Of a stretch of DNA of 64,000 nt, positions 21,966 to 32,326 are shown piece after piece. The notes beneath the pieces were generated by a model. That model saw only the letters and a list, made by a program, of their open reading frames with translations. It did not search any database and was not told where the DNA came from. A program made the position numbers and the translations under genes. Positions within the stretch are counted from its first letter, which is position 1. Each line of letters starts with the position of its first letter. The stretch is from Aquimarina sp. TRL1 (lineage in GTDB: Bacteria; Bacteroidota; Bacteroidia; Flavobacteriales; Flavobacteriaceae). The DNA is taken from positions 4,516,501-4,580,500 of the forward strand of contig NZ_CP053590.1 of the NCBI RefSeq assembly GCF_013365535.1. The letters run 5' to 3'.

Positions 21966-23414
21966 ATGTTATTTAACTCGCTACCCTATTTTATTTTTTT
22001 ACCCATTGTATTTGTTGTGTATTGGTTTCTTAGGAGAAGTTATACAAAACAAAACATTTTCTTATTAGCTGCCAGTTACTTCTTTTACGGATTGTGGGAT
22101 TGGCGCTTTTTATTTTTAATCCTTGCCAGTACTGCTGTAGATTACGTAGTGGGTATTAAGATTGCTACTGCTACACATCCTCATTTTAGAAAGTACTGGT
22201 TACTAACCAGTGTATTTTTTAATATGAGTTTATTGGGATTCTTCAAGTATTACAATTTTTTTATTGAATCGTGGAGTGATCTCACCTCTTTATTGGGATT
22301 TAGTACTCAAAGTTCCTGGACCTTGCAAGTCATTCTTCCGGTCGGTATTTCCTTTTACACTTTCCAGACAATGTCCTATTCTCTGGATATTTATTACAAA
22401 AGGCTACGCCCTACCCGGGATTTTATTTCATTTGCAACCTTCGTCGGTTTTTTTCCTCAGCTAGTTGCTGGTCCTATAGAACGAGCTTCCAACCTGCTTC
22501 ACCAAATAACTGATAAAAGAAGTTTTAATTACACTCAATGTACTGATGGGCTAAAACTAATTCTATGGGGATTGTTCAAAAAAATAGTCATTGCCGATGG
22601 GGTTGCACCTATTGTTGACGACATATTTGCTCATTACAGTACACATAGTGCTTCTACATTGCTACTAGGTGTTTGTCTATTCAGTTTTCAGGTTTATGGT
22701 GATTTTAGCGGCTACTCTGATATCGCTATTGGAACCTCCAAATTATTTGGAATCGAACTAAGGTCTAATTTTAAATTCCCTAATTTTTCACGAAATGTAG
22801 CAGAATACTGGCAGCGATGGCATGTTTCTCTATCGACATGGTTTAGACATTATGTTTATATACCCTTAGGAGGCAGCCGTGTAACCAAATCAAAATCGGT
22901 CCGAAATATCATCATTATTTTTCTGGTTAGCGGATTCTGGCATGGCGCTAATTGGACTTTTATAGTATGGGGAGCCATTCATGCAATCTTATACATTCCT
23001 GTATTCTTAATGGGAAGAAACCGGATTTATATGAATACTGTTATTGCCGAAAACAAAGTATTCCCTTCGTTTATAGAGGTTTTACAGCTTTTGCTTACCT
23101 TTTCTCTCGTCACTTTTTCCCGTATATTTTTCAGGTCTGCTTCTGTGACAGATGCTTTTGCTTTTATAAAACAATTTTGTACTCACTTTTATTATGAACA
23201 CTATCAACATCCACTGGGGTACAGGATGATTGACTACTTCATCGTATTATTACTCTTCATCTGCTATGAGTACATCATTCGCAGAAATGAAAGATCTCCA
23301 ATCCCTTTTAATTCCAAAACCCTCCGTTTTATCACCTATCTGTTACTGATATTTTTCATACTGTTATTCTATGATGATCACGTAGATCGATCTTTTATTT
23401 ACTTTCAATTCTAA
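21966..23414 (+). CDS. MBOAT-family O-acyltransferase (AlgI/DltB-like)
   Basis: Polytopic inner-membrane acyltransferase predicted to move an acyl group across the membrane to a periplasmic acceptor. The 482-residue product has about ten hydrophobic segments and the family motifs: LPVGISFYTFQTMSY (about 124-138), GFFPQLVAGPIERA, DFSGYSDIAIG (about 246-256), RWHVSLSTWFR with His286, and the catalytic His326 in SGFWHGANWTF. Four bases separate it from the SGNH-like partner gene, as in algI/algJ-type and dltB/dltD-type pairs. Adenylation and carrier-protein genes of the Dlt type occur in the facing operon (26752-28516), so it may use a carrier-bound acyl or aminoacyl donor. Confidence 0.93.
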   Translation: MLFNSLPYFIFLPIVFVVYWFLRRSYTKQNIFLLAASYFFYGLWDWRFLFLILASTAVDYVVGIKIATATHPHFRKYWLLTSVFFNMSLLGFFKYYNFFIESWSDLTSLLGFSTQSSWTLQVILPVGISFYTFQTMSYSLDIYYKRLRPTRDFISFATFVGFFPQLVAGPIERASNLLHQITDKRSFNYTQCTDGLKLILWGLFKKIVIADGVAPIVDDIFAHYSTHSASTLLLGVCLFSFQVYGDFSGYSDIAIGTSKLFGIELRSNFKFPNFSRNVAEYWQRWHVSLSTWFRHYVYIPLGGSRVTKSKSVRNIIIIFLVSGFWHGANWTFIVWGAIHAILYIPVFLMGRNRIYMNTVIAENKVFPSFIEVLQLLLTFSLVTFSRIFFRSASVTDAFAFIKQFCTHFYYEHYQHPLGYRMIDYFIVLLLFICYEYIIRRNERSPIPFNSKTLRFITYLLLIFFILLFYDDHVDRSFIYFQF

Positions 23415-23418
23415 TCCT

Positions 23419-24363
23419 ATGAAAAAGCTTTTATACACAATTACAATCTATAGTTTTTTAATCTTGATTTCTTTAGAACTAATGGTTAGAGTATTTCATC
23501 TGGGGAAAGATACCCCACTCCGATATCTGGATCATAATAAGGTAGAAAAGTGGAAACCAAATCAGAAAGGGTATGCAGTAACCGGTAACAGAAGACAAAA
23601 TTTTTCCGAATACCGTATCAACAATTCCGGTTTTAATTCCTACAGAGAATTCTCTCCTTCATATTCTCAAAAAGAAATAGCTCTTGTAGGAGACTCTTTT
23701 ATCGAAGGTTTTCATCAACACTACCAAAACTCTATAGGAAAAAAAATAGAACAACAGTTAACTGATACCGAAGTATACGAATATGGTTATGCAGGATATG
23801 ATCTGGCAGATCAACTGCACCTTATTCATGCATATAAGAAAGATTTTGATAAAATCGATCAGGTATTTTTAGGAGTTAAATTTTCAAATGACCTGACCCG
23901 GGATCGGTACAAGGTTGTACAATACCGATTGAATCTTGACTCTCCGACCAATCGTTTATTTAAGAAAAGTAAATTATTGGTTTACGCTCAAAACATCGGG
24001 ATATTGGATGCCCCAAAAAGGCTTATCAATTCCCTCAAAGCTTTTGTTTTCCCTTCGCAGCAAACGACTTCTAAAAAACGTACTCAGAAAGATACTGAAG
24101 TAATTTACCTCGCTAACTTTGAAAAATTAATCAAACGTTATGGTTTTGATAAAAAGCGTTTTACTTTTCTTCTTGATAAAGAAAACACAAGTCCATTGTT
24201 TATAGAACATCTTGAAAAAAACGAATATAAGTATCTCGATTTTTCGTCAGAATTCTCCCGTTCCGAGAAACCTAAAACACTTATTTATGACAAACATTGG
24301 AACAATCACGGAAGAGATCTTATCGCAAAAGTCATCGTTGATTATATAAAAAAGAAGCCCTAA
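23419..24363 (+). CDS. SGNH/GDSL-like membrane-anchored acyltransferase partner (DltD/AlgJ-like role)
   Basis: A 314-residue protein with an N-terminal signal anchor (about 5-25) and a periplasmic SGNH-hydrolase-like domain. Block I is VGDSFIEG with Ser93; the C-terminal catalytic Asp/His block is DKHWNNHG at 291-298, the same D-x-H-W arrangement as in AlgJ/AlgX-type enzymes. Directly follows the MBOAT gene, so it probably takes the acyl group from it and places it on the polysaccharide. It ends only 1 base before the end of the convergent NeuD-FemAB gene. The acyl acceptor and donor are not known. Confidence 0.85.
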   Translation: MKKLLYTITIYSFLILISLELMVRVFHLGKDTPLRYLDHNKVEKWKPNQKGYAVTGNRRQNFSEYRINNSGFNSYREFSPSYSQKEIALVGDSFIEGFHQHYQNSIGKKIEQQLTDTEVYEYGYAGYDLADQLHLIHAYKKDFDKIDQVFLGVKFSNDLTRDRYKVVQYRLNLDSPTNRLFKKSKLLVYAQNIGILDAPKRLINSLKAFVFPSQQTTSKKRTQKDTEVIYLANFEKLIKRYGFDKKRFTFLLDKENTSPLFIEHLEKNEYKYLDFSSEFSRSEKPKTLIYDKHWNNHGRDLIAKVIVDYIKKKP

Positions 24364-24364
24364 C

Positions 24365-26110
24365 TTAACTCTCTAATCTATACAATGGAAAAAAACCTTT
24401 CTTAATATCTGTCTCACAGGTCATATTCTCTGTCATATTACACTTCTGTAACACAAGTTTCATATACTGCTCCGGATTAATAATCTTTCTTCCTGTATAG
24501 TAAGTAACGTCCTGATCATTAGGAAAGAATGATTTTTTATACTTATACAAACTATCCCCATCAGACCTTCCTCCTCCCAGAATATAATATTTATAATGGT
24601 GTTTTCTCGCCCAGTTCATAACCTCTATTTTTAGAAAATCATTAGGGCGTGTATAAAAGTAATCTGATAAAGTTCCTCCCAGGTATGAGTACAATGTATT
24701 ATCATTCACCAAAATCAATTCTGTAGAAATTGGTTTATCATCTTTATATACCATTCCTATAATAGCATTCTTAGGATTGTTTTTTATGAAATCGATAAAG
24801 TAATCTATTTTGTGATAATACAATGAGTCGGCATTATTTCGCTGCATTGTACTGATATAGATATCATAAAAGTCTTTGATTATAGCTGGTGAGATCGGGT
24901 TGCTATATACTTTTAATGTCAGGGATTGCTGAGTTGCTTTTCTATAATTGTTTCTGACTTTGGCTTTGAACTGGCTCCATTGAGTTTCTTCATCTACGAT
25001 TTCTCCTTTTACATTGGTTAATGTAGGGATTAATTCGCCATTATAACGACAGTGGTTATTATTGAGACTAAACCGAATAAACTCACTTACAATATTTTCT
25101 TTTTTATACCATGCATCTACCTCTCTCCAGAAATATTCCAGATCTTTACATTCTACATGTTCAATATCCAGCAAAGGACCTCCATAACCATAAGGAGAAA
25201 CAACATCTTTATATTTCCCGTCTGTTTCTTTTATATCTCTCAGGTAAAATGGCATAACGACAATAGGTCTCGAATTTCGCTCCAGTACAAAATAACTCAG
25301 GCGATGCTCCCGCATCCCGGTAATCCCTATATATTCTAAGGTATAAAAGGGGTTTTCGTTTCCTACTGAATTTAATATCTTTTTATACTTTTTTAATGCT
25401 TTTTCTGAATCAATTGTATAACAACTGAAGGTTAACTTTTGAGTAGATTTTCCGAGATATCCATCTCCGTTTTCTCTTTCTCTAACTTTTTTTGCAGGAA
25501 TTCCATATGCTACCACGTTTCTTCGTATATCTTTTGTTACAACAGCTCCTGCTCCTATTACAGTATGAGCCCCTATAGTTGTGTTCTGTAGAATCGTCAC
25601 TGCAATAGAAATTGCTGTAAACTCACCTATAATAACAGTTCCTCCCGTGGTTACCCCAGGAGCCAGGCTCGAGAAATCTTCCATAATCCCATCATGACCG
25701 AAATTGGCATTCGTATTAATGATACAAAACTCTCCGACTACGGCATCGGCATTGACTGTACCTGAAGCCAGAATTACGGTTCCTCTACCAATATTGGTTT
25801 TTTCGCTTACAATTGCCGATGGATGAATCACTGTTATAAATTCAAAATCTGGAGCGACTTCCAAGACTTTTTTATACAACTTATACCGAATCCAGTTATC
25901 GCCAATAGAAATAATTCCCTTGGTAATTCCTTTTTTCATTAGAGCTGGTATGATATTCTCCGAACCAAGAATATCATATCCCATAATCTTCTGTCCCTTT
26001 GGTTTATATGAATCTATAAACCCGTATATTTCATACTTATCTTCCAGTTCTATAGCTTCTGCTATCACTTTACCATGTCCGGAGGCTCCAATAATTAAAA
26101 CTTTTTCCAT
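24365..26110 (-). CDS. Fusion: NeuD/PglD-like sugar N-acetyltransferase and FemAB-like GNAT acyltransferase
   Basis: A 581-residue two-domain protein. Residues 1-212 are a PglD/NeuD acetyltransferase: Rossmann-like start LIIGASGHGKVI and a left-handed beta-helix of hexapeptide repeats with the general-base His139 in FGHDGIMEDF and the C-terminal AYGIPAKKVRE. This domain could acetylate the 4-amino sugar made by the PglF/PglE pair. Residues about 225-581 are a FemAB/BioF2-like GNAT domain (VVMPFYLRD, RNNYRKATQQSL, DDKPISTELILVNDN, GGTLSDYF, ILGGGRSDGDSLYKYKKSF), a fold that uses aminoacyl-tRNA or acyl donors to modify cell-envelope precursors. No stop or frameshift separates the two. Last gene of the 30851-24365 unit. 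Confidence 0.9.
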   Translation of the reverse strand: MEKVLIIGASGHGKVIAEAIELEDKYEIYGFIDSYKPKGQKIMGYDILGSENIIPALMKKGITKGIISIGDNWIRYKLYKKVLEVAPDFEFITVIHPSAIVSEKTNIGRGTVILASGTVNADAVVGEFCIINTNANFGHDGIMEDFSSLAPGVTTGGTVIIGEFTAISIAVTILQNTTIGAHTVIGAGAVVTKDIRRNVVAYGIPAKKVRERENGDGYLGKSTQKLTFSCYTIDSEKALKKYKKILNSVGNENPFYTLEYIGITGMREHRLSYFVLERNSRPIVVMPFYLRDIKETDGKYKDVVSPYGYGGPLLDIEHVECKDLEYFWREVDAWYKKENIVSEFIRFSLNNNHCRYNGELIPTLTNVKGEIVDEETQWSQFKAKVRNNYRKATQQSLTLKVYSNPISPAIIKDFYDIYISTMQRNNADSLYYHKIDYFIDFIKNNPKNAIIGMVYKDDKPISTELILVNDNTLYSYLGGTLSDYFYTRPNDFLKIEVMNWARKHHYKYYILGGGRSDGDSLYKYKKSFFPNDQDVTYYTGRKIINPEQYMKLVLQKCNMTENMTCETDIKKGFFPLYRLES

Positions 26111-26115
26111 CTCGA

Positions 26116-26727
26116 TTATTCGTTATCATTACCTGTAAATACCGGCATGTTTAGATTTTCTTGATTATTCACTCCTTCCTTTATCAAAACCTTCTTAATG
26201 GTTTTGAATATTATTCTAATATCTAATAAGAGGCTTAGGTTTTCTACATACCAGACATCGTATTCAAATTTTTGAGACCAGCTGATTGCATTTCGCCCAT
26301 TTACCTGTGCCCATCCTGTTATCCCTGGGCGCACCAAATGTCTTTTTTTCTGCCGTTCATTGTATAACGGAAGGTATTGCTCTAATAAAGGCCTCGGACC
26401 TATTAAACTCATATCGCCCTTCAATACATTAATCAGCTGCGGAATTTCATCCAACGAATACTTACGAACAAATGCTCCTGTTTTAGTAATTCGATCTTTA
26501 TATGGTAATAATTCCCCATTGGCATCTTTTTTATCATTCATGGATTTTAACTTGATAATCCTAAAGAGCTTTCCATCTTTACCAGGTCTGGTTTGAAAGA
26601 AAAAAGGTTTTCCTTTATTCGAGAACAATAAAACGATGATGACTATTATCAAAACCGGTGACAAAATCAACAGCCCAAAAAATGCGGCTAAAAAATCAAG
26701 TAATCTCTTAAAAACTAAACGATACAT
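26116..26727 (-). CDS. PglC-like phosphoglycosyl transferase (sugar transferase 1)
   Basis: Transfers a sugar phosphate from a UDP sugar to undecaprenyl phosphate to start repeat-unit synthesis. The 203-residue product has the PglC topology: an N-terminal re-entrant hydrophobic helix (about 8-35) and a cytoplasmic domain with RPGKDGKLFRIIKLKSM, the catalytic DE in YSLDEIPQLINVLKGDMSLIGPRPLL and RPGITGWAQVNGRN. It lies 5 bases upstream of the NeuD-FemAB gene, which matches the pglD-pglC order of bacillosamine loci. A second enzyme of the same type is encoded at 30237-30851 in the same unit. The C-terminal 20 residues are variable. Confidence 0.95.
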   Translation of the reverse strand: MYRLVFKRLLDFLAAFFGLLILSPVLIIVIIVLLFSNKGKPFFFQTRPGKDGKLFRIIKLKSMNDKKDANGELLPYKDRITKTGAFVRKYSLDEIPQLINVLKGDMSLIGPRPLLEQYLPLYNERQKKRHLVRPGITGWAQVNGRNAISWSQKFEYDVWYVENLSLLLDIRIIFKTIKKVLIKEGVNNQENLNMPVFTGNDNE

Positions 26728-26751
26728 TTTATGTACAGATATATAATATTA

Positions 26752-26994
26752 TTAGTTTAATTCTTTTTTTATAGCTGCTACGAGATCTCCTACATTTTCC
26801 ATTTTCATCAAGTCCATTAATTTAAACTTAACGTTGAATTTTTTCTCTACTTCTCCTATTAACATCATATGGGTAATCGACTCCCATCCTTCTACATCAT
26901 CCGCAACGGTCTCTGTTGTCAATTCGAAATCATCGTGTTCCAAAATAATAACAAACGATTCTTTAATGCCGGTTAATATATTTTCTACTGTCAT
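26752..26994 (-). CDS. Acyl carrier protein (DltC-like role)
   Basis: An 80-residue carrier protein with an acidic four-helix pattern and the phosphopantetheine site EGWESITHM, with Ser39 as the attachment residue. It is encoded 22 bases after a stand-alone adenylation enzyme of DltA size, and no fatty-acid synthesis genes are near, so it more likely carries an amino acid or a special acyl group for the polysaccharide than bulk fatty acids. The facing MBOAT/SGNH pair would be the transfer machinery. Loading by the neighbouring ligase is inferred from context. Confidence 0.93.
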   Translation of the reverse strand: MTVENILTGIKESFVIILEHDDFELTTETVADDVEGWESITHMMLIGEVEKKFNVKFKLMDLMKMENVGDLVAAIKKELN

Positions 26995-27016
26995 GAATCT
27001 ATATTTTTTGTGTATT

Positions 27017-28516
27017 TTATTGTGTAAAAAATGTTCTAAGTTCTTTTCTATTTATTTTGCCATTAATACTATGCGGAAATTCGTCTACAAACTTATAATG
27101 CGTCGGAATCATATACGGGGGCATTTTTTTCTTCATATAAGCTATCATTGCATCGAGTTCAAACACTTCTGACTCGATTGCCAGCCCTAATTCTGCATTT
27201 CCCAATGAATTGGTAATGTCCAATGCTACTATATTGACTTTTTTCTCAACCACCGTTTTAGCATGATATTCTATTTCTGCCAGTTCTACACGATATCCTC
27301 GTATTTTTACCTGAAAATCAGCACGCCCTACATACATAAAATCTCCTTCTTCATCCACAAAACACAAATCTCCTGTCTTATAAGCACGTAACTGCTTTCC
27401 TTTTTCATCAAAATTAAAAAAAGAAACTTCATTTCGTTCTTTATTTTTCCAATATCCTGCAGTTAATTGATCTCCTATTAAACAGAGTTCTCCTGTTTCT
27501 CCTACAGCTACCTCATTATTATCTGCATCGACAATCATATATCGTACTCCTGCTAATTCTCTACCAATGGAAATAATTCCATTATGGGCTTTGGTAGCTG
27601 ATACCGCATCATAAGGGTAATACCCACTATACACAGTAAATTCTGTCGGACCATAATAATTAAATATCCGCGCATTGGAAATACACTCACTCCATTCTGC
27701 TGCAATATCTGCATGCAATGCTCCTCCTCCAAAACTACAATATCGTACTTCGGGAGCTATGATCTCACTATAATATGGTCGCAAATAATTAATGATAGAG
27801 GGAACCATTGTCAGTACTGTTAATTTATATGTCTCCATCAACCTGAAAACCTGTAAATATTTAATCGCATTAGAAGGTATCGTATATATACTTGCTCCTT
27901 TAAGCAAAGGAAACAGGTAGGTCACTACCGAGAAATCAAATGTCAATTCAAACATTTGAAGACATCGATCTGAAGAAACTAAATTAAACTCTGAATCTGC
28001 ATCAACTGCATTCACCAAACTCTCGACATTATGAAATGTTATAGGCACTCCTTTTGGCACTCCTGTAGTCCCTGATGTAAAAAGGATATACGCAATATCC
28101 TCTTTATTTACTGGTTTTGGCTTGGATGCACTTCCGTTATTCTGAAGAGTAGCTGTAGTAATTACAGTAAAAGAATCTTCATAGATACTTTTTTCTGAAG
28201 AATCTAACACATATACAGAATTCGTCAATTCAAAAACGTGAACATTTCGCTCCTTCGGCGTCAAAGGGTTTACCGGAACATAGGCTTTCCCTTCAAACCA
28301 AAGTGCCAATATACTGGCATATGTATATATATCATCATTCGTAACCAACCCTACAAGTTTATCATTTTCAGGAATGGTATCATTAATTACATTTCGAATC
28401 CTGGCTATCTCTTTCCCTAATTGCTTATAGCTATAAAAAGTATCCTTAATACAAAATGCCGTATCCTCCCGACTGGATGTAATAACTTTATATAAGTTGG
28501 TTATGTAATTCATCAA
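27017..28516 (-). CDS. Stand-alone adenylation enzyme (DltA-like amino acid/acyl--carrier protein ligase)
   Basis: ANL-superfamily ligase that activates a carboxylic acid with ATP and loads it on a carrier protein. The 499-residue size equals DltA (about 500). Core motifs: A3 FTSGTTGVPKG (146-156), A5 NYYGPTEFTVYSGY, A7 YKTGDL, A8 GRADFQVKIRGYRVELAEIE and A10 NGKINRKELR with the catalytic Lys. The order ligase then carrier protein, as in dltA and dltC, and the MBOAT/SGNH genes nearby suggest D-alanine or another small amino/acyl acid as substrate, but the specificity residues were not decoded. A second in-frame ATG directly follows the first; either may be the start. Confidence 0.92.
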   Translation of the reverse strand: MMNYITNLYKVITSSREDTAFCIKDTFYSYKQLGKEIARIRNVINDTIPENDKLVGLVTNDDIYTYASILALWFEGKAYVPVNPLTPKERNVHVFELTNSVYVLDSSEKSIYEDSFTVITTATLQNNGSASKPKPVNKEDIAYILFTSGTTGVPKGVPITFHNVESLVNAVDADSEFNLVSSDRCLQMFELTFDFSVVTYLFPLLKGASIYTIPSNAIKYLQVFRLMETYKLTVLTMVPSIINYLRPYYSEIIAPEVRYCSFGGGALHADIAAEWSECISNARIFNYYGPTEFTVYSGYYPYDAVSATKAHNGIISIGRELAGVRYMIVDADNNEVAVGETGELCLIGDQLTAGYWKNKERNEVSFFNFDEKGKQLRAYKTGDLCFVDEEGDFMYVGRADFQVKIRGYRVELAEIEYHAKTVVEKKVNIVALDITNSLGNAELGLAIESEVFELDAMIAYMKKKMPPYMIPTHYKFVDEFPHSINGKINRKELRTFFTQ

Positions 28517-28555: not shown

Positions 28556-29653
28556 TTAAAAGAAATGTCCATCTCTGTTATGAAAACTCAAATGCCCTAA
28601 CGTCAAAGAAAGCGTTTTATGTGCTAAAGCTTTCTTAATTTTTTTGTAAACAAATATTGCTGAGTACTTTTCAGTGATTTTTTTAGCCAGGATGGCATCA
28701 TCTGTAAATATAAAACTGGTTTTTTCTTTTATAAAATGCTCCATTAGTGCATCTACAATAACTGCTAATTTCTTTTCTTCTTCTACCAAAAAGTATTTTA
28801 TATTAAACTCTTTATTATTAACCACATAAGAGAAAAAACCAATAATTTTTTCACCTTCCTTCACCGCAACATTGGTTATATACACCTTACTACTCAATCC
28901 TGCGAGTAATGACTTATAAGGAAACGTATCTCCTGGGTTTACCTGTGTATATTGTTTATAATCTAATTGCCAATTAACATACTCTTGCGTCTTCAGAATC
29001 AGATCATCCTTGCACAAAGGCGCTATAAACGCCCAGAGTTTATCGTCAATGGATTGAGGGTATTCATAAGATAATACAGCAGTTCTTTTTTTAATTCCCC
29101 AGTTATTTTTATTCCTTACTAAGAAAGCGACTGTTTTATCAAGCACTTTTAACACCGGTTTAAACGGTGTTAACTTCGGAAATCTCCCAACGAGAATAGA
29201 GGGTTCTACACTAAAAAAAAGTGTAAATCGCTCTCTGGCTAACAAAACATCAAAAGGTTGTTTTTTATAAAACTCATTGACTTCTTCTGCAAATGATTTG
29301 ATAATGACCCTGCTTTTAGTCAACCCTAAAGCTTCTCTATAAAAATACGTTCCTAATACTGTATCCTTATATTTTTTATGCACCCACCACAATAGCATCC
29401 AATATACTTTCTCTACTGTTTTTTCTACTGTATTAATCAAATCAGGAAATAATAGGATGTAAGCCATTATTTTTCCTTTTTCTACAGCTATAATACCGCA
29501 ATAATCATCTTCTTCAATTCGATTGTTCTGTAGCAACCAAGTCGCTTTACTTTTCGGTAAAGGTGCTACTTCATCCTTCCAGAATTTATTTGATTTTACA
29601 GCTTCTCTTAACGTTGATTTTGTTATTGGAATTATTTCCAGATCTTCCCCCAT
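28556..29653 (-). CDS. Unknown protein, possible GNAT-fold acyltransferase
   Basis: A 365-residue soluble protein without signal peptide. The N-terminal 110 residues resemble a GNAT-like core (ITKSTLREAVKSNKFWKDE, a stretch ending in GIIAVEKGKIMAYILLF, then YFYREALGLTKSRVI), and a second alpha/beta part around residues 240-330 (VAVKEGEKIIGFFSYVVNNKEFNIKYFLVEEE) looks like another GNAT half, so a tandem GNAT fold is possible. I do not recognise a named family. Its position between the formyltransferase and the DltA-like ligase suggests a role in modifying an amino sugar or in acyl transfer. Spacing is 39 bases to the ligase and 9 to the formyltransferase. Confidence 0.7.
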   Translation of the reverse strand: MGEDLEIIPITKSTLREAVKSNKFWKDEVAPLPKSKATWLLQNNRIEEDDYCGIIAVEKGKIMAYILLFPDLINTVEKTVEKVYWMLLWWVHKKYKDTVLGTYFYREALGLTKSRVIIKSFAEEVNEFYKKQPFDVLLARERFTLFFSVEPSILVGRFPKLTPFKPVLKVLDKTVAFLVRNKNNWGIKKRTAVLSYEYPQSIDDKLWAFIAPLCKDDLILKTQEYVNWQLDYKQYTQVNPGDTFPYKSLLAGLSSKVYITNVAVKEGEKIIGFFSYVVNNKEFNIKYFLVEEEKKLAVIVDALMEHFIKEKTSFIFTDDAILAKKITEKYSAIFVYKKIKKALAHKTLSLTLGHLSFHNRDGHFF

Positions 29654-31024: not shown

Positions 31025-32326
31025 TTAGTTTTTCATCTCATTAACCATAAAACGCCGCTTACCAGAATCCAGAAGAGGAATTTCATCTACATACTCTACA
31101 GATATGGTCGCATCAGCTCCTAAAAAGTCTCTGTATTTTTTGATAAATTCTGCTTCTCTCTGAAAAACTCCTTCAATATTAATTTTAAAAAGATAAACGC
31201 CATGATCTTTTTGAATCAACTGACATTGTTTCAGCTCCTGGTAATGATTCGCTACATACATAATATTAGAGTATATAGCTTCTCCTTTTGTATCCGTAAG
31301 TACGTCCATCTTTCTACCTTCTATACGACATAAGATTTCTTTTCCATCAATCATATGTTTAGCTCCTATATCTCCTGTATCATATCGTATAACCGGCATG
31401 CAGTAATTATAAAGGTCTGTCACCACAATTTTTCCTATAGCTCCATTTTCTACAGGAGTATTAGTTTCTATATCGAGTATTTCTACGTAATAACTGGCTG
31501 TATTGATGATAAAACCATCTTCTTCAGTATGAATTTCCTGCGCTATGATTCCATTTTCTGTATTAGAATATCTCGATATCGGATTAATCCCGAAATATTT
31601 CTTCATAGCATCTCTGGTATAATCATTTAACTTTTCTGAGATCGTAATAACAGAAACCAGCTTACCAGGTAACGGACTACTGTTTTTTTCATCCATATAC
31701 CTACAAATCTTTTCTATAGCAGACACATACCCTAACCAACTCATCGTTGATTTATTTTTTCTCAGTTTGTCCAGAATGTCTTCTATAACATGATTTTCTT
31801 TTAAACTAAAAACATCAACCGGAATGATATTTTTAATTTTATTGGTTAGAAATGACTTTTTACCATATGTCTTCCATAACCTAAAATAGGTCAATTCATT
31901 TCCCAGGGTATAACCACCTCTTTCAGAAAAGTAAATATTATCAGCTGTATTTCTATCTCTTTTAGACATATCATGGAACAACCTAAATGGAGTCCCTGTT
32001 GATCCACTGGTAAACACCTCCTGCTTGGGTTCATCTATATAGGATGCTGCTTGAAAACCATTAAATTGGTCTCTGATTATATTTTTATCGATAATCGGAA
32101 AATCGTGTATAGATGAGTATTCCCTGTATTTTTTGTAAAAATCAGTACTATGAACTGCATGGTCTAGAATATTGATCAAGCTATCATCTTTTTTTGCCAT
32201 TACTTTAGGGTGTAACGGGTTCTCTATAATGTATTTTATATCTTGATAATGATTTTTGACCTTACCTTTTTTTACTTTATCCATAAACCAAAAAAAGTTC
32301 CGTCTTAATAGTTCTGCATTTCTCAT
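31025..32326 (-). CDS. CapK-like adenylate-forming enzyme (phenylacetate-CoA ligase family)
   Basis: A 433-residue ANL-superfamily protein of the CapK/PaaK type that occurs in capsule loci. The phosphate-binding motif EVFTSGSTGTPFRLF is near residues 106-120; further family motifs are SRYSNTENGIIAQE, VVTDLYNYCMPVIRYDTGDIG and RIEGRKMDVL. Such proteins probably activate an acid for attachment to the polysaccharide, but their substrates are largely unknown. It is 20 bases downstream of an ATP-grasp gene, so the two may work together on an amide- or ester-linked substituent. Last gene of the 34561-31025 unit. Confidence 0.88.
   Translation of the reverse strand: MRNAELLRRNFFWFMDKVKKGKVKNHYQDIKYIIENPLHPKVMAKKDDSLINILDHAVHSTDFYKKYREYSSIHDFPIIDKNIIRDQFNGFQAASYIDEPKQEVFTSGSTGTPFRLFHDMSKRDRNTADNIYFSERGGYTLGNELTYFRLWKTYGKKSFLTNKIKNIIPVDVFSLKENHVIEDILDKLRKNKSTMSWLGYVSAIEKICRYMDEKNSSPLPGKLVSVITISEKLNDYTRDAMKKYFGINPISRYSNTENGIIAQEIHTEEDGFIINTASYYVEILDIETNTPVENGAIGKIVVTDLYNYCMPVIRYDTGDIGAKHMIDGKEILCRIEGRKMDVLTDTKGEAIYSNIMYVANHYQELKQCQLIQKDHGVYLFKINIEGVFQREAEFIKKYRDFLGADATISVEYVDEIPLLDSGKRRFMVNEMKN

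What the first reader, a model, noticed from the sequence alone, without database searches (positions are those of the whole stretch)
21966..28516. Complete Dlt-like acyl-transfer set inside a Gram-negative polysaccharide locus
MBOAT (21966-23414), SGNH partner (23419-24363), acyl carrier protein (26752-26994) and a DltA-sized adenylation enzyme (27017-28516) lie within 6.6 kb, the same four functions as DltB, DltD, DltC and DltA of Gram-positive bacteria. Here they are split over two convergent units and mixed with amino-sugar genes, so the predicted product is an aminoacyl- or acyl-substituted exopolysaccharide rather than teichoic acid. All catalytic motifs are present (Lys in A10, Ser39 in the carrier, His326 in MBOAT, Ser93 in SGNH). 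The combination may be a new route for decorating surface glycans in Bacteroidota.
Basis: partly seen in the sequence, partly recalled or inferred. Interest (0 to 1): 0.75.

Follow-up and report, generated by a model that had tools for sequence, protein, structure and literature searches.

The report
Carrier-protein aminoacylation cassette in surface-glycan locus
A flavobacterium carries, inside its surface-sugar gene cluster, a three-gene cassette that probably activates an amino acid, loads it on a small carrier protein and attaches it to an amino sugar with an enzyme predicted to be built like the eukaryotic N-myristoyltransferase; the membrane acyltransferase pair next door looks like a separate module rather than part of one Dlt system.

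The parts
28556..29653 (-). 365-aa tandem-GNAT protein with predicted N-myristoyltransferase fold; proposed carrier-dependent N-aminoacyltransferase
27017..28516 (-). stand-alone amino-acid-type adenylation enzyme (carrier ligase)
   Evidence: PF00501, TIGR01733-like; pocket DFVTSGYVYK with Asp194, A10 Lys487
26752..26994 (-). acyl/peptidyl carrier protein, Ser39 for phosphopantetheine
   Evidence: PF00550; best PDB match 2lml, E 8.7e-13; next to the ligase in 60 of 60
21966..23414 (+). MBOAT acyltransferase, His326; separate module
   Evidence: PF03062; DltB chains the only PDB matches at E 0.01; tree
23419..24363 (+). SGNH-type partner of the MBOAT (Ser93, Asp291, His293)
   Evidence: motifs; within 60 bp of the MBOAT in 46 of 46 opposite-strand MBOATs of clade-1 loci
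24365..26110 (-). fusion of PglD/NeuD-type sugar N-acetyltransferase (about residues 1-212) and FemAB-like aminoacyltransferase (about 213-581)
26116..26727 (-). PglC-like initiating sugar-phosphate transferase 1
   Evidence: PF02397
29663..30259 (-). formyltransferase (PurN/Fmt-like), candidate sugar N-formyltransferase
   Evidence: PF00551; TIGR00639 139.5 of 150.1 bits
30237..30851 (-). PglC-like initiating sugar-phosphate transferase 2
   Evidence: PF02397
18305..20230 (-). PglF/WbpM-like UDP-sugar 4,6-dehydratase (ORF called from 20305; 20230 is an inner ATG)
   Evidence: PF02719 397.9 bits
20227..21396 (-). PglE/LegC-like sugar aminotransferase
   Evidence: PF01041 312.7 bits; TIGR04181 386.7 of 420 bits

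Best explanation
The locus makes a Wzx/Wzy-type surface polysaccharide with amino sugars. Within it a self-contained triad adds an aminoacyl group: the adenylation enzyme activates an amino acid (not D-alanine, to judge by its pocket) with ATP and loads it on the phosphopantetheine of the carrier; the 365-aa protein with the N-myristoyltransferase fold then takes the aminoacyl group from the carrier and joins it by an amide bond to a sugar amine, most simply on a nucleotide- or lipid-linked 4-amino sugar in the cytoplasm, with its own C-terminal carboxylate as the base, as in N-myristoyltransferase. The MBOAT-SGNH pair is a second, independent module that O-acylates (most simply O-acetylates) the exported chain. 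Shown here by sequence: the genes, the modules, the pocket. Predicted: the fold. Inferred: amino acid, donor, acceptor, amide bond, order of steps.
Against: No sequence-level NMT membership: Pfam NMT hits are sub-threshold (7 of 43 members, best E 0.011; E 0.2 on this protein in its own genome), no PDB sequence match. Foldseek alone puts VipF and Eis-like tandem GNATs close behind NMT in E-value. NMT's known donor is acyl-CoA, and donor use here is untested. The modules co-occur above chance, and in two loci (L043, L107) an MBOAT-SGNH pair sits directly upstream of the triad on one strand, which fits a working link. Other N-acyltransferases in the operon (PglD, FemAB, formyltransferase) could use the same acceptor. 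In L038 no polysaccharide gene was recognised near the triad.
Confidence: 0.5

Rival explanations
1. The NMT-like protein works as NMT does: it uses acyl-CoA as donor and the alpha-amine of the carrier-bound amino acid as acceptor, making N-acyl-aminoacyl-carrier. A second enzyme (FemAB-like half of 24365-26110, PglD half, or MBOAT-SGNH) then moves the N-acylamino acid to the glycan.
For: NMT's N-terminal GNAT half holds the acyl-CoA and its acceptor is the amine of an N-terminal residue (PMC4964394 passages), which a carrier-bound amino acid resembles; a FemAB match is present in 55 of 60 triad loci, and L064, which lacks one, has four Acetyltransf_6-type ORFs upstream.
Against: No FemAB match in L038, L064, L065, L067 and no MBOAT-family match in the complete genome G351, so no single second enzyme was found to be constant.
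Confidence: 0.22
2. One reading: one Dlt-like chain, ligase to carrier to MBOAT to SGNH, giving O-aminoacyl esters on the polysaccharide.
For: Modules co-occur above chance, Fisher p 3e-5; in three Allomuricauda loci the SGNH gene lies 267-382 bp beyond the ligase with the carrier between; L043 and L107 have MBOAT-SGNH-365 aa-ligase-carrier on one strand; the sister ligase lineage is in a Dlt-type operon; DltB chains are the only PDB matches of the MBOAT at E 0.01.
Against: Triad in a complete genome without MBOAT or SGNH match; SGNH without triad in 16 of 22 genomes; intermixed tree; pocket lacks the Cys found in the L. oris DltA and in 22 of 23 sister-lineage ligases; opposite strands, separate units.
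Confidence: 0.15
3. Ligase and carrier load a non-amino acid (short hydroxy or fatty acid), and the 365-aa protein makes an N-acyl sugar as predicted for the 3,5-dihydroxyhexanoyl group of Flavobacterium psychrophilum.
For: A PglD homologue taking an acyl group from an O-polysaccharide carrier is predicted there (PMC6519341 passages); NMT acts on fatty acyl groups.
Against: Asp at the amino-binding place in 65 of 65 clade-1 ligases; best NCBIfam model is amino acid adenylation TIGR01733; no ketosynthase among the 18 locus proteins scanned against Pfam.
Confidence: 0.1

Closest known systems
Dlt system (DltA, DltC, DltB, DltD), also in Dickeya, Pectobacterium, Photorhabdus (PMC3544676, passages)
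   Same: amino-acid ligase, carrier, MBOAT and SGNH-type protein in one region
   Different: window ligase lacks the DltA pocket Cys, DltA and DltB model scores below cut-off, no DltD match, two convergent units, constant partner is another protein
Sister Dlt-type operon in Aquimarina, Flavivirga, Flaviramulus and others (L069-L089 without L076; found here)
   Same: ligase about 50% identical to the window's, carrier next to it
   Different: ligase-carrier-MBOAT-SGNH on one strand, DltA-like pocket with Cys in 22 of 23 rows, no 365-aa protein; no second ligase of this kind in the window's genome at E 1e-100
AlmE-AlmF-AlmG of Vibrio cholerae (PMC12930378, passages)
   Same: Gram-negative amino-acid ligase, carrier and one dedicated transferase
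   Different: glycine onto lipid A acyl chains; transferase of another fold (recalled)
Flavobacterium psychrophilum O-polysaccharide acylation: PglF, PglE, PglD homologue WfpG, carrier WfpD (PMC6519341, passages)
   Same: flavobacterium, bacillosamine-type sugar genes, dedicated carrier, predicted N-acylation of UDP-Qui2NAc4NH2
   Different: group thought to be made by ketosynthases and transferred by a PglD homologue; no amino-acid ligase in the passages seen
Protein N-myristoyltransferase
   Same: predicted full-length two-GNAT fold, conserved C-terminal end
   Different: bacterial, no significant sequence similarity, gene beside a carrier protein; substrate unknown
GmACP3 of Geobacter metallireducens (PDB 2lml; paper not held, title seen in a reference list; link of 2lml to GmACP3 recalled)
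   Same: carrier related by sequence (E 8.7e-13), given a putative role in LPS synthesis by that title
   Different: other organism, partners not compared here

Membership tests
DltA (D-alanine--carrier ligase) | TIGR01734 cut-off 559.85 bits | tested here: not met
   258.4 bits
DltA (D-alanine--carrier ligase) | DltA-type pocket with Cys at position 301 (PheA numbering; its role recalled) | tested here: not met
   window DFVTSGYVYK; Cys absent in 65 of 65 clade-1 rows; L. oris DltA DLMVLCTVAK
DltB | TIGR04091 cut-off 375 bits | tested here: not met
   147.1 bits
DltD | PF04914 match | tested here: not met
   none up to E 1; L. oris DltD as positive control 393.4 bits
dlt operon | the four genes go together | tested here: not met
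N-myristoyltransferase | two-GNAT NMT fold over the full length | tested here: met
N-myristoyltransferase | Pfam NMT (PF01233) and NMT_C (PF02799) cut-offs | tested here: not met
   PF01233 12.9 of 25 bits; NMT_C no place on this protein in 149 genomes
N-myristoyltransferase | C-terminal carboxylate as catalytic base | tested here: inconclusive
   C-terminal motif in 64 of 64, aligned range reaches NMT chain ends; place in the active site not inspected
N-myristoyltransferase | myristoyl-CoA donor, N-terminal glycine acceptor | not testable with these tools
   needs assay
FemABX (second half of 24365-26110) | PF02388 cut-off and FemX fold | tested here: met
MBOAT | PF03062 and catalytic His | tested here: met
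   99.2 bits; His326; [FL]WHG in 122 of 122 full-size rows
AlgX/AlgJ SGNH acetyltransferases | PF16822 cut-off 26.5 | tested here: not met
   16.5 bits

The most novel reading that the evidence does not exclude
Bacteria have an N-myristoyltransferase-fold enzyme that takes its acyl group from a carrier protein instead of CoA and joins an amino acid to an amino sugar: a small flavobacterial enzyme family and a further kind of transferase, besides MBOAT-SGNH, AAC(3)-type and single-GNAT ones, plugged into the same ligase-carrier pair for decorating surface glycans.
Probability: 0.4. Interest if true: 0.75.

Novelty: new variant of a known kind. Interest (0 to 1): 0.58.

Why it matters
If right, it adds an amide-forming, carrier-dependent route to the ways bacteria put amino acids on surface polysaccharides, and it gives a predicted bacterial relative of N-myristoyltransferase, a fold known to me only from eukaryotes and their viruses. 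It also turns a vague 'Dlt-like set' into two testable modules, and points to a Dlt-type operon elsewhere in the same bacterial family.

Tried and rejected
One Dlt chain: rejected as best reading for the reasons under the rivals. Ligase substrate from the ten-residue code: DFVTSGYVYK matched no code that I can recall, so no amino acid is named. NMT kinship by sequence: Pfam NMT over 149 genomes gave 31 places in 28 genomes, all below cut-off, two of them on the 365-aa protein (G000, G070); NMT_C gave none on it; so the case rests on the predicted fold. No FemX row is among the 50 shown for the 365-aa model, which does not exclude it. Papers: searches listed no report of this cassette or of a bacterial NMT-fold carrier-dependent enzyme; I judged by listings, and they cover only the held open-licence library. 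Clade labels: clade 1 (60 loci) and clade 2 (20 loci) were assigned by me from identity and neighbours; a ligase tree on 53 of 91 rows supports clade 1 only modestly (90/53). MBOAT tree: 87 rows kept of 130 (core_triad thinned from 48 to 25, 'other' from 45 to 25), and one row, L019_62_60, is mislabelled core_triad: it is a second MBOAT. Dropped from the ligase set: 1 of 89 rows, L098 at 170 bits. A strict A10 pattern matched 71 of 88 ligases, although every one of the codes ends in Lys at the aligned place; the carrier-serine pattern matched 77 of 85 ORFs, SGNH GDSF 63 of 66 and D-x-H-W-N 65 of 66.
Full report
Observation. The SGNH assignment rests on motifs and on its place behind an MBOAT, since Pfam gives only a sub-threshold ALGX match. 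The minus-strand unit is tightly packed: PglC2, formyltransferase, 365-aa protein, ligase, carrier, PglC1, PglD-FemAB fusion, with gaps of -23, 9, 39, 22, 24 and 5 bases; MBOAT-SGNH lies on the plus strand, convergent. The surroundings are a surface-polysaccharide locus: Wza- and Wzc-like genes, a PglF-like dehydratase, a PglE/LegC-like aminotransferase, a flippase-type protein, an EpsG-family protein and a glycosyltransferase. So a sugar with a free amine is likely to be made here (inference).

Who goes with whom. I took 80 relatives of the ligase with their flanks (the tool kept the best 80 of 217) and looked for the window's proteins by tblastn. I split them into clade 1 (60 loci, window type) and clade 2 (20 loci). 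In clade 1 the carrier follows the ligase in 60 of 60 and the 365-aa gene precedes it in 59 of 60; the miss, L046, is a 4-kb contig with other ORFs upstream. The opposite-strand MBOAT is present in 46 of 60 within the stretch, each with the SGNH within 60 bp (46 of 46); SGNH in 47, FemAB in 55. Of the 14 loci without that MBOAT, 12 (not L043 and L046) were named to a genome search and 11 could be searched: 9 of the 11 have a relative of 57-77% identity elsewhere in the genome, one of these with a stop inside, and two (G152 = L031 and G159 = L060) have none above 42%. So in most of those genomes the MBOAT exists, only further away.

Independent sample. In 149 genomes of the family the 365-aa protein is in 7 and the ligase at E 1e-100 in the same 7, adjacent in each by coordinates. 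The SGNH is in 22, of which 6 have the triad and 16 do not. The association of the modules is above chance (Fisher p 3e-5), but the pair plainly exists without the triad. The stretches around those 16 (four of them short, at contig ends) all hold an MBOAT match: on the same strand within 240 bp of the SGNH in 12, on the opposite strand within 37 bp in 3, and 2.5 kb away in 1. A FemAB relative of 42-52% identity is there in 7 of 16, a weak one (24-25%) in 5, none in 4; a ligase-like match in only one, L098, at 29%. The reverse also holds: G351, a complete one-contig genome from a phylum-wide search (4 of 395 genomes with the ligase at E 1e-85), has the triad, no match to the window's MBOAT (E 1e-20), none to Pfam MBOAT (E 0.01) and none to the SGNH (E 1e-5). 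G152 lacks the SGNH and has only a 556-aa MBOAT at 38%. G044 has the triad with a 53% MBOAT and a 27% SGNH directly upstream on the same strand, as has L043 in arrangement; these two are the best support for a working link.

Trees. In the MBOAT tree the window's protein falls in a well-supported set of 39 rows (100/98) in which 24 rows from loci with and 15 from loci without the triad intermix: 8 label changes for each label (one further core_triad row, L019_62_60, lies elsewhere and is mislabelled). The MBOATs that follow a clade-2 carrier form their own set (20 rows, 99/99), with one further row, L080_16285_54, apart. The ligase tree keeps clade 1 on one side of a branch with modest support (90/53).

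A Dlt-type operon in relatives. In clade 2, 21 of 21 carrier-MBOAT pairs (20 loci) are followed on the same strand by an SGNH-motif ORF of 302-323 aa with a GDS or GSS serine; a late D-x-x-H was found in 20 of 21 (L088 shows one only at residue 83). The carrier is next to the best-matching ligase in 17 of 20; in L072, L075 and L078 a second ligase lies between. Their ligases have Cys at the place of DltA's Cys in 22 of 23 rows, like the L. oris DltA. Several genomes carry both clades about 20 kb apart. The window's genome has no second ligase of this kind at E 1e-100.

The ligase pocket. By motif anchors and an alignment (PheA numbering recalled), the window reads DFVTSGYVYK, identical in 51 of 65 clade-1 rows; Asp at the first place in 65 of 65; Cys301 in 0 of 65. 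So an amino acid is likely, D-alanine unlikely. I do not name the amino acid.

Mechanism. Ligase plus carrier plus one N-acyltransferase is the simplest reading; transfer to a sugar amine fits the amine-making genes and the precedent predicted for Flavobacterium psychrophilum, where a PglD homologue is thought to move an acyl group from an O-polysaccharide carrier to UDP-Qui2NAc4NH2 (PMC6519341, passages). A Segatella copri polysaccharide locus shows ligase, carrier, AAC(3)-family N-acetyltransferase and alanine racemase in a row, and two genomes of another family (G416, G502) have ligases of this kind followed by 218-232-aa GNAT genes, with a carrier further on in G416. So the ligase-carrier pair seems to be combined with different transferases. 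The main rival, equally in line with the fold, is that the NMT-like enzyme acylates the amine of the carrier-bound amino acid.

Known or new. Gram-negative dlt genes are in print for Dickeya, Pectobacterium and Photorhabdus (PMC3544676, passages), and AlmE-AlmF-AlmG is a Gram-negative ligase-carrier-transferase set (PMC12930378, passages). The general idea is thus not new. What I did not find in print (searches; listings) is a bacterial NMT-fold enzyme tied to an amino-acid carrier.

Noticed in passing
L069-L089 without L076, e.g. L079:10004-14148: Dlt-type operon ligase-carrier-MBOAT-SGNH with DltA-like pocket Cys in Flavobacteriaceae, often about 20 kb from the window-type triad; L072, L075, L078 have two ligases in tandem.
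   Followed up: partly
window 24365-26110: PglD/NeuD acetyltransferase fused to a FemAB-like aminoacyltransferase in one ORF; a stand-alone 360-373-aa FemAB ORF is found in 38 clade-1 loci, longer ORFs of 583-1236 aa in others.
   Followed up: partly
L038: Triad beside an LptF/LptG-family permease and a RibBA-type gene, with no polysaccharide gene recognised near it; its genome's SGNH relative has a stop inside.
   Followed up: partly
L064:4143-8709: Run of four Acetyltransf_6-type (GNAT) ORFs just upstream of the triad in Allomuricauda.
   Followed up: partly
L123 (Segatella copri plasmid record): Ligase, carrier, AAC(3)-family protein and alanine racemase beside phosphonate genes in a polysaccharide locus.
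   Followed up: partly
window 31025-32326: PaaK-like adenylate-forming ORF in the same locus, with a match in 29 of 60 clade-1 loci; role unknown.
   Followed up: no
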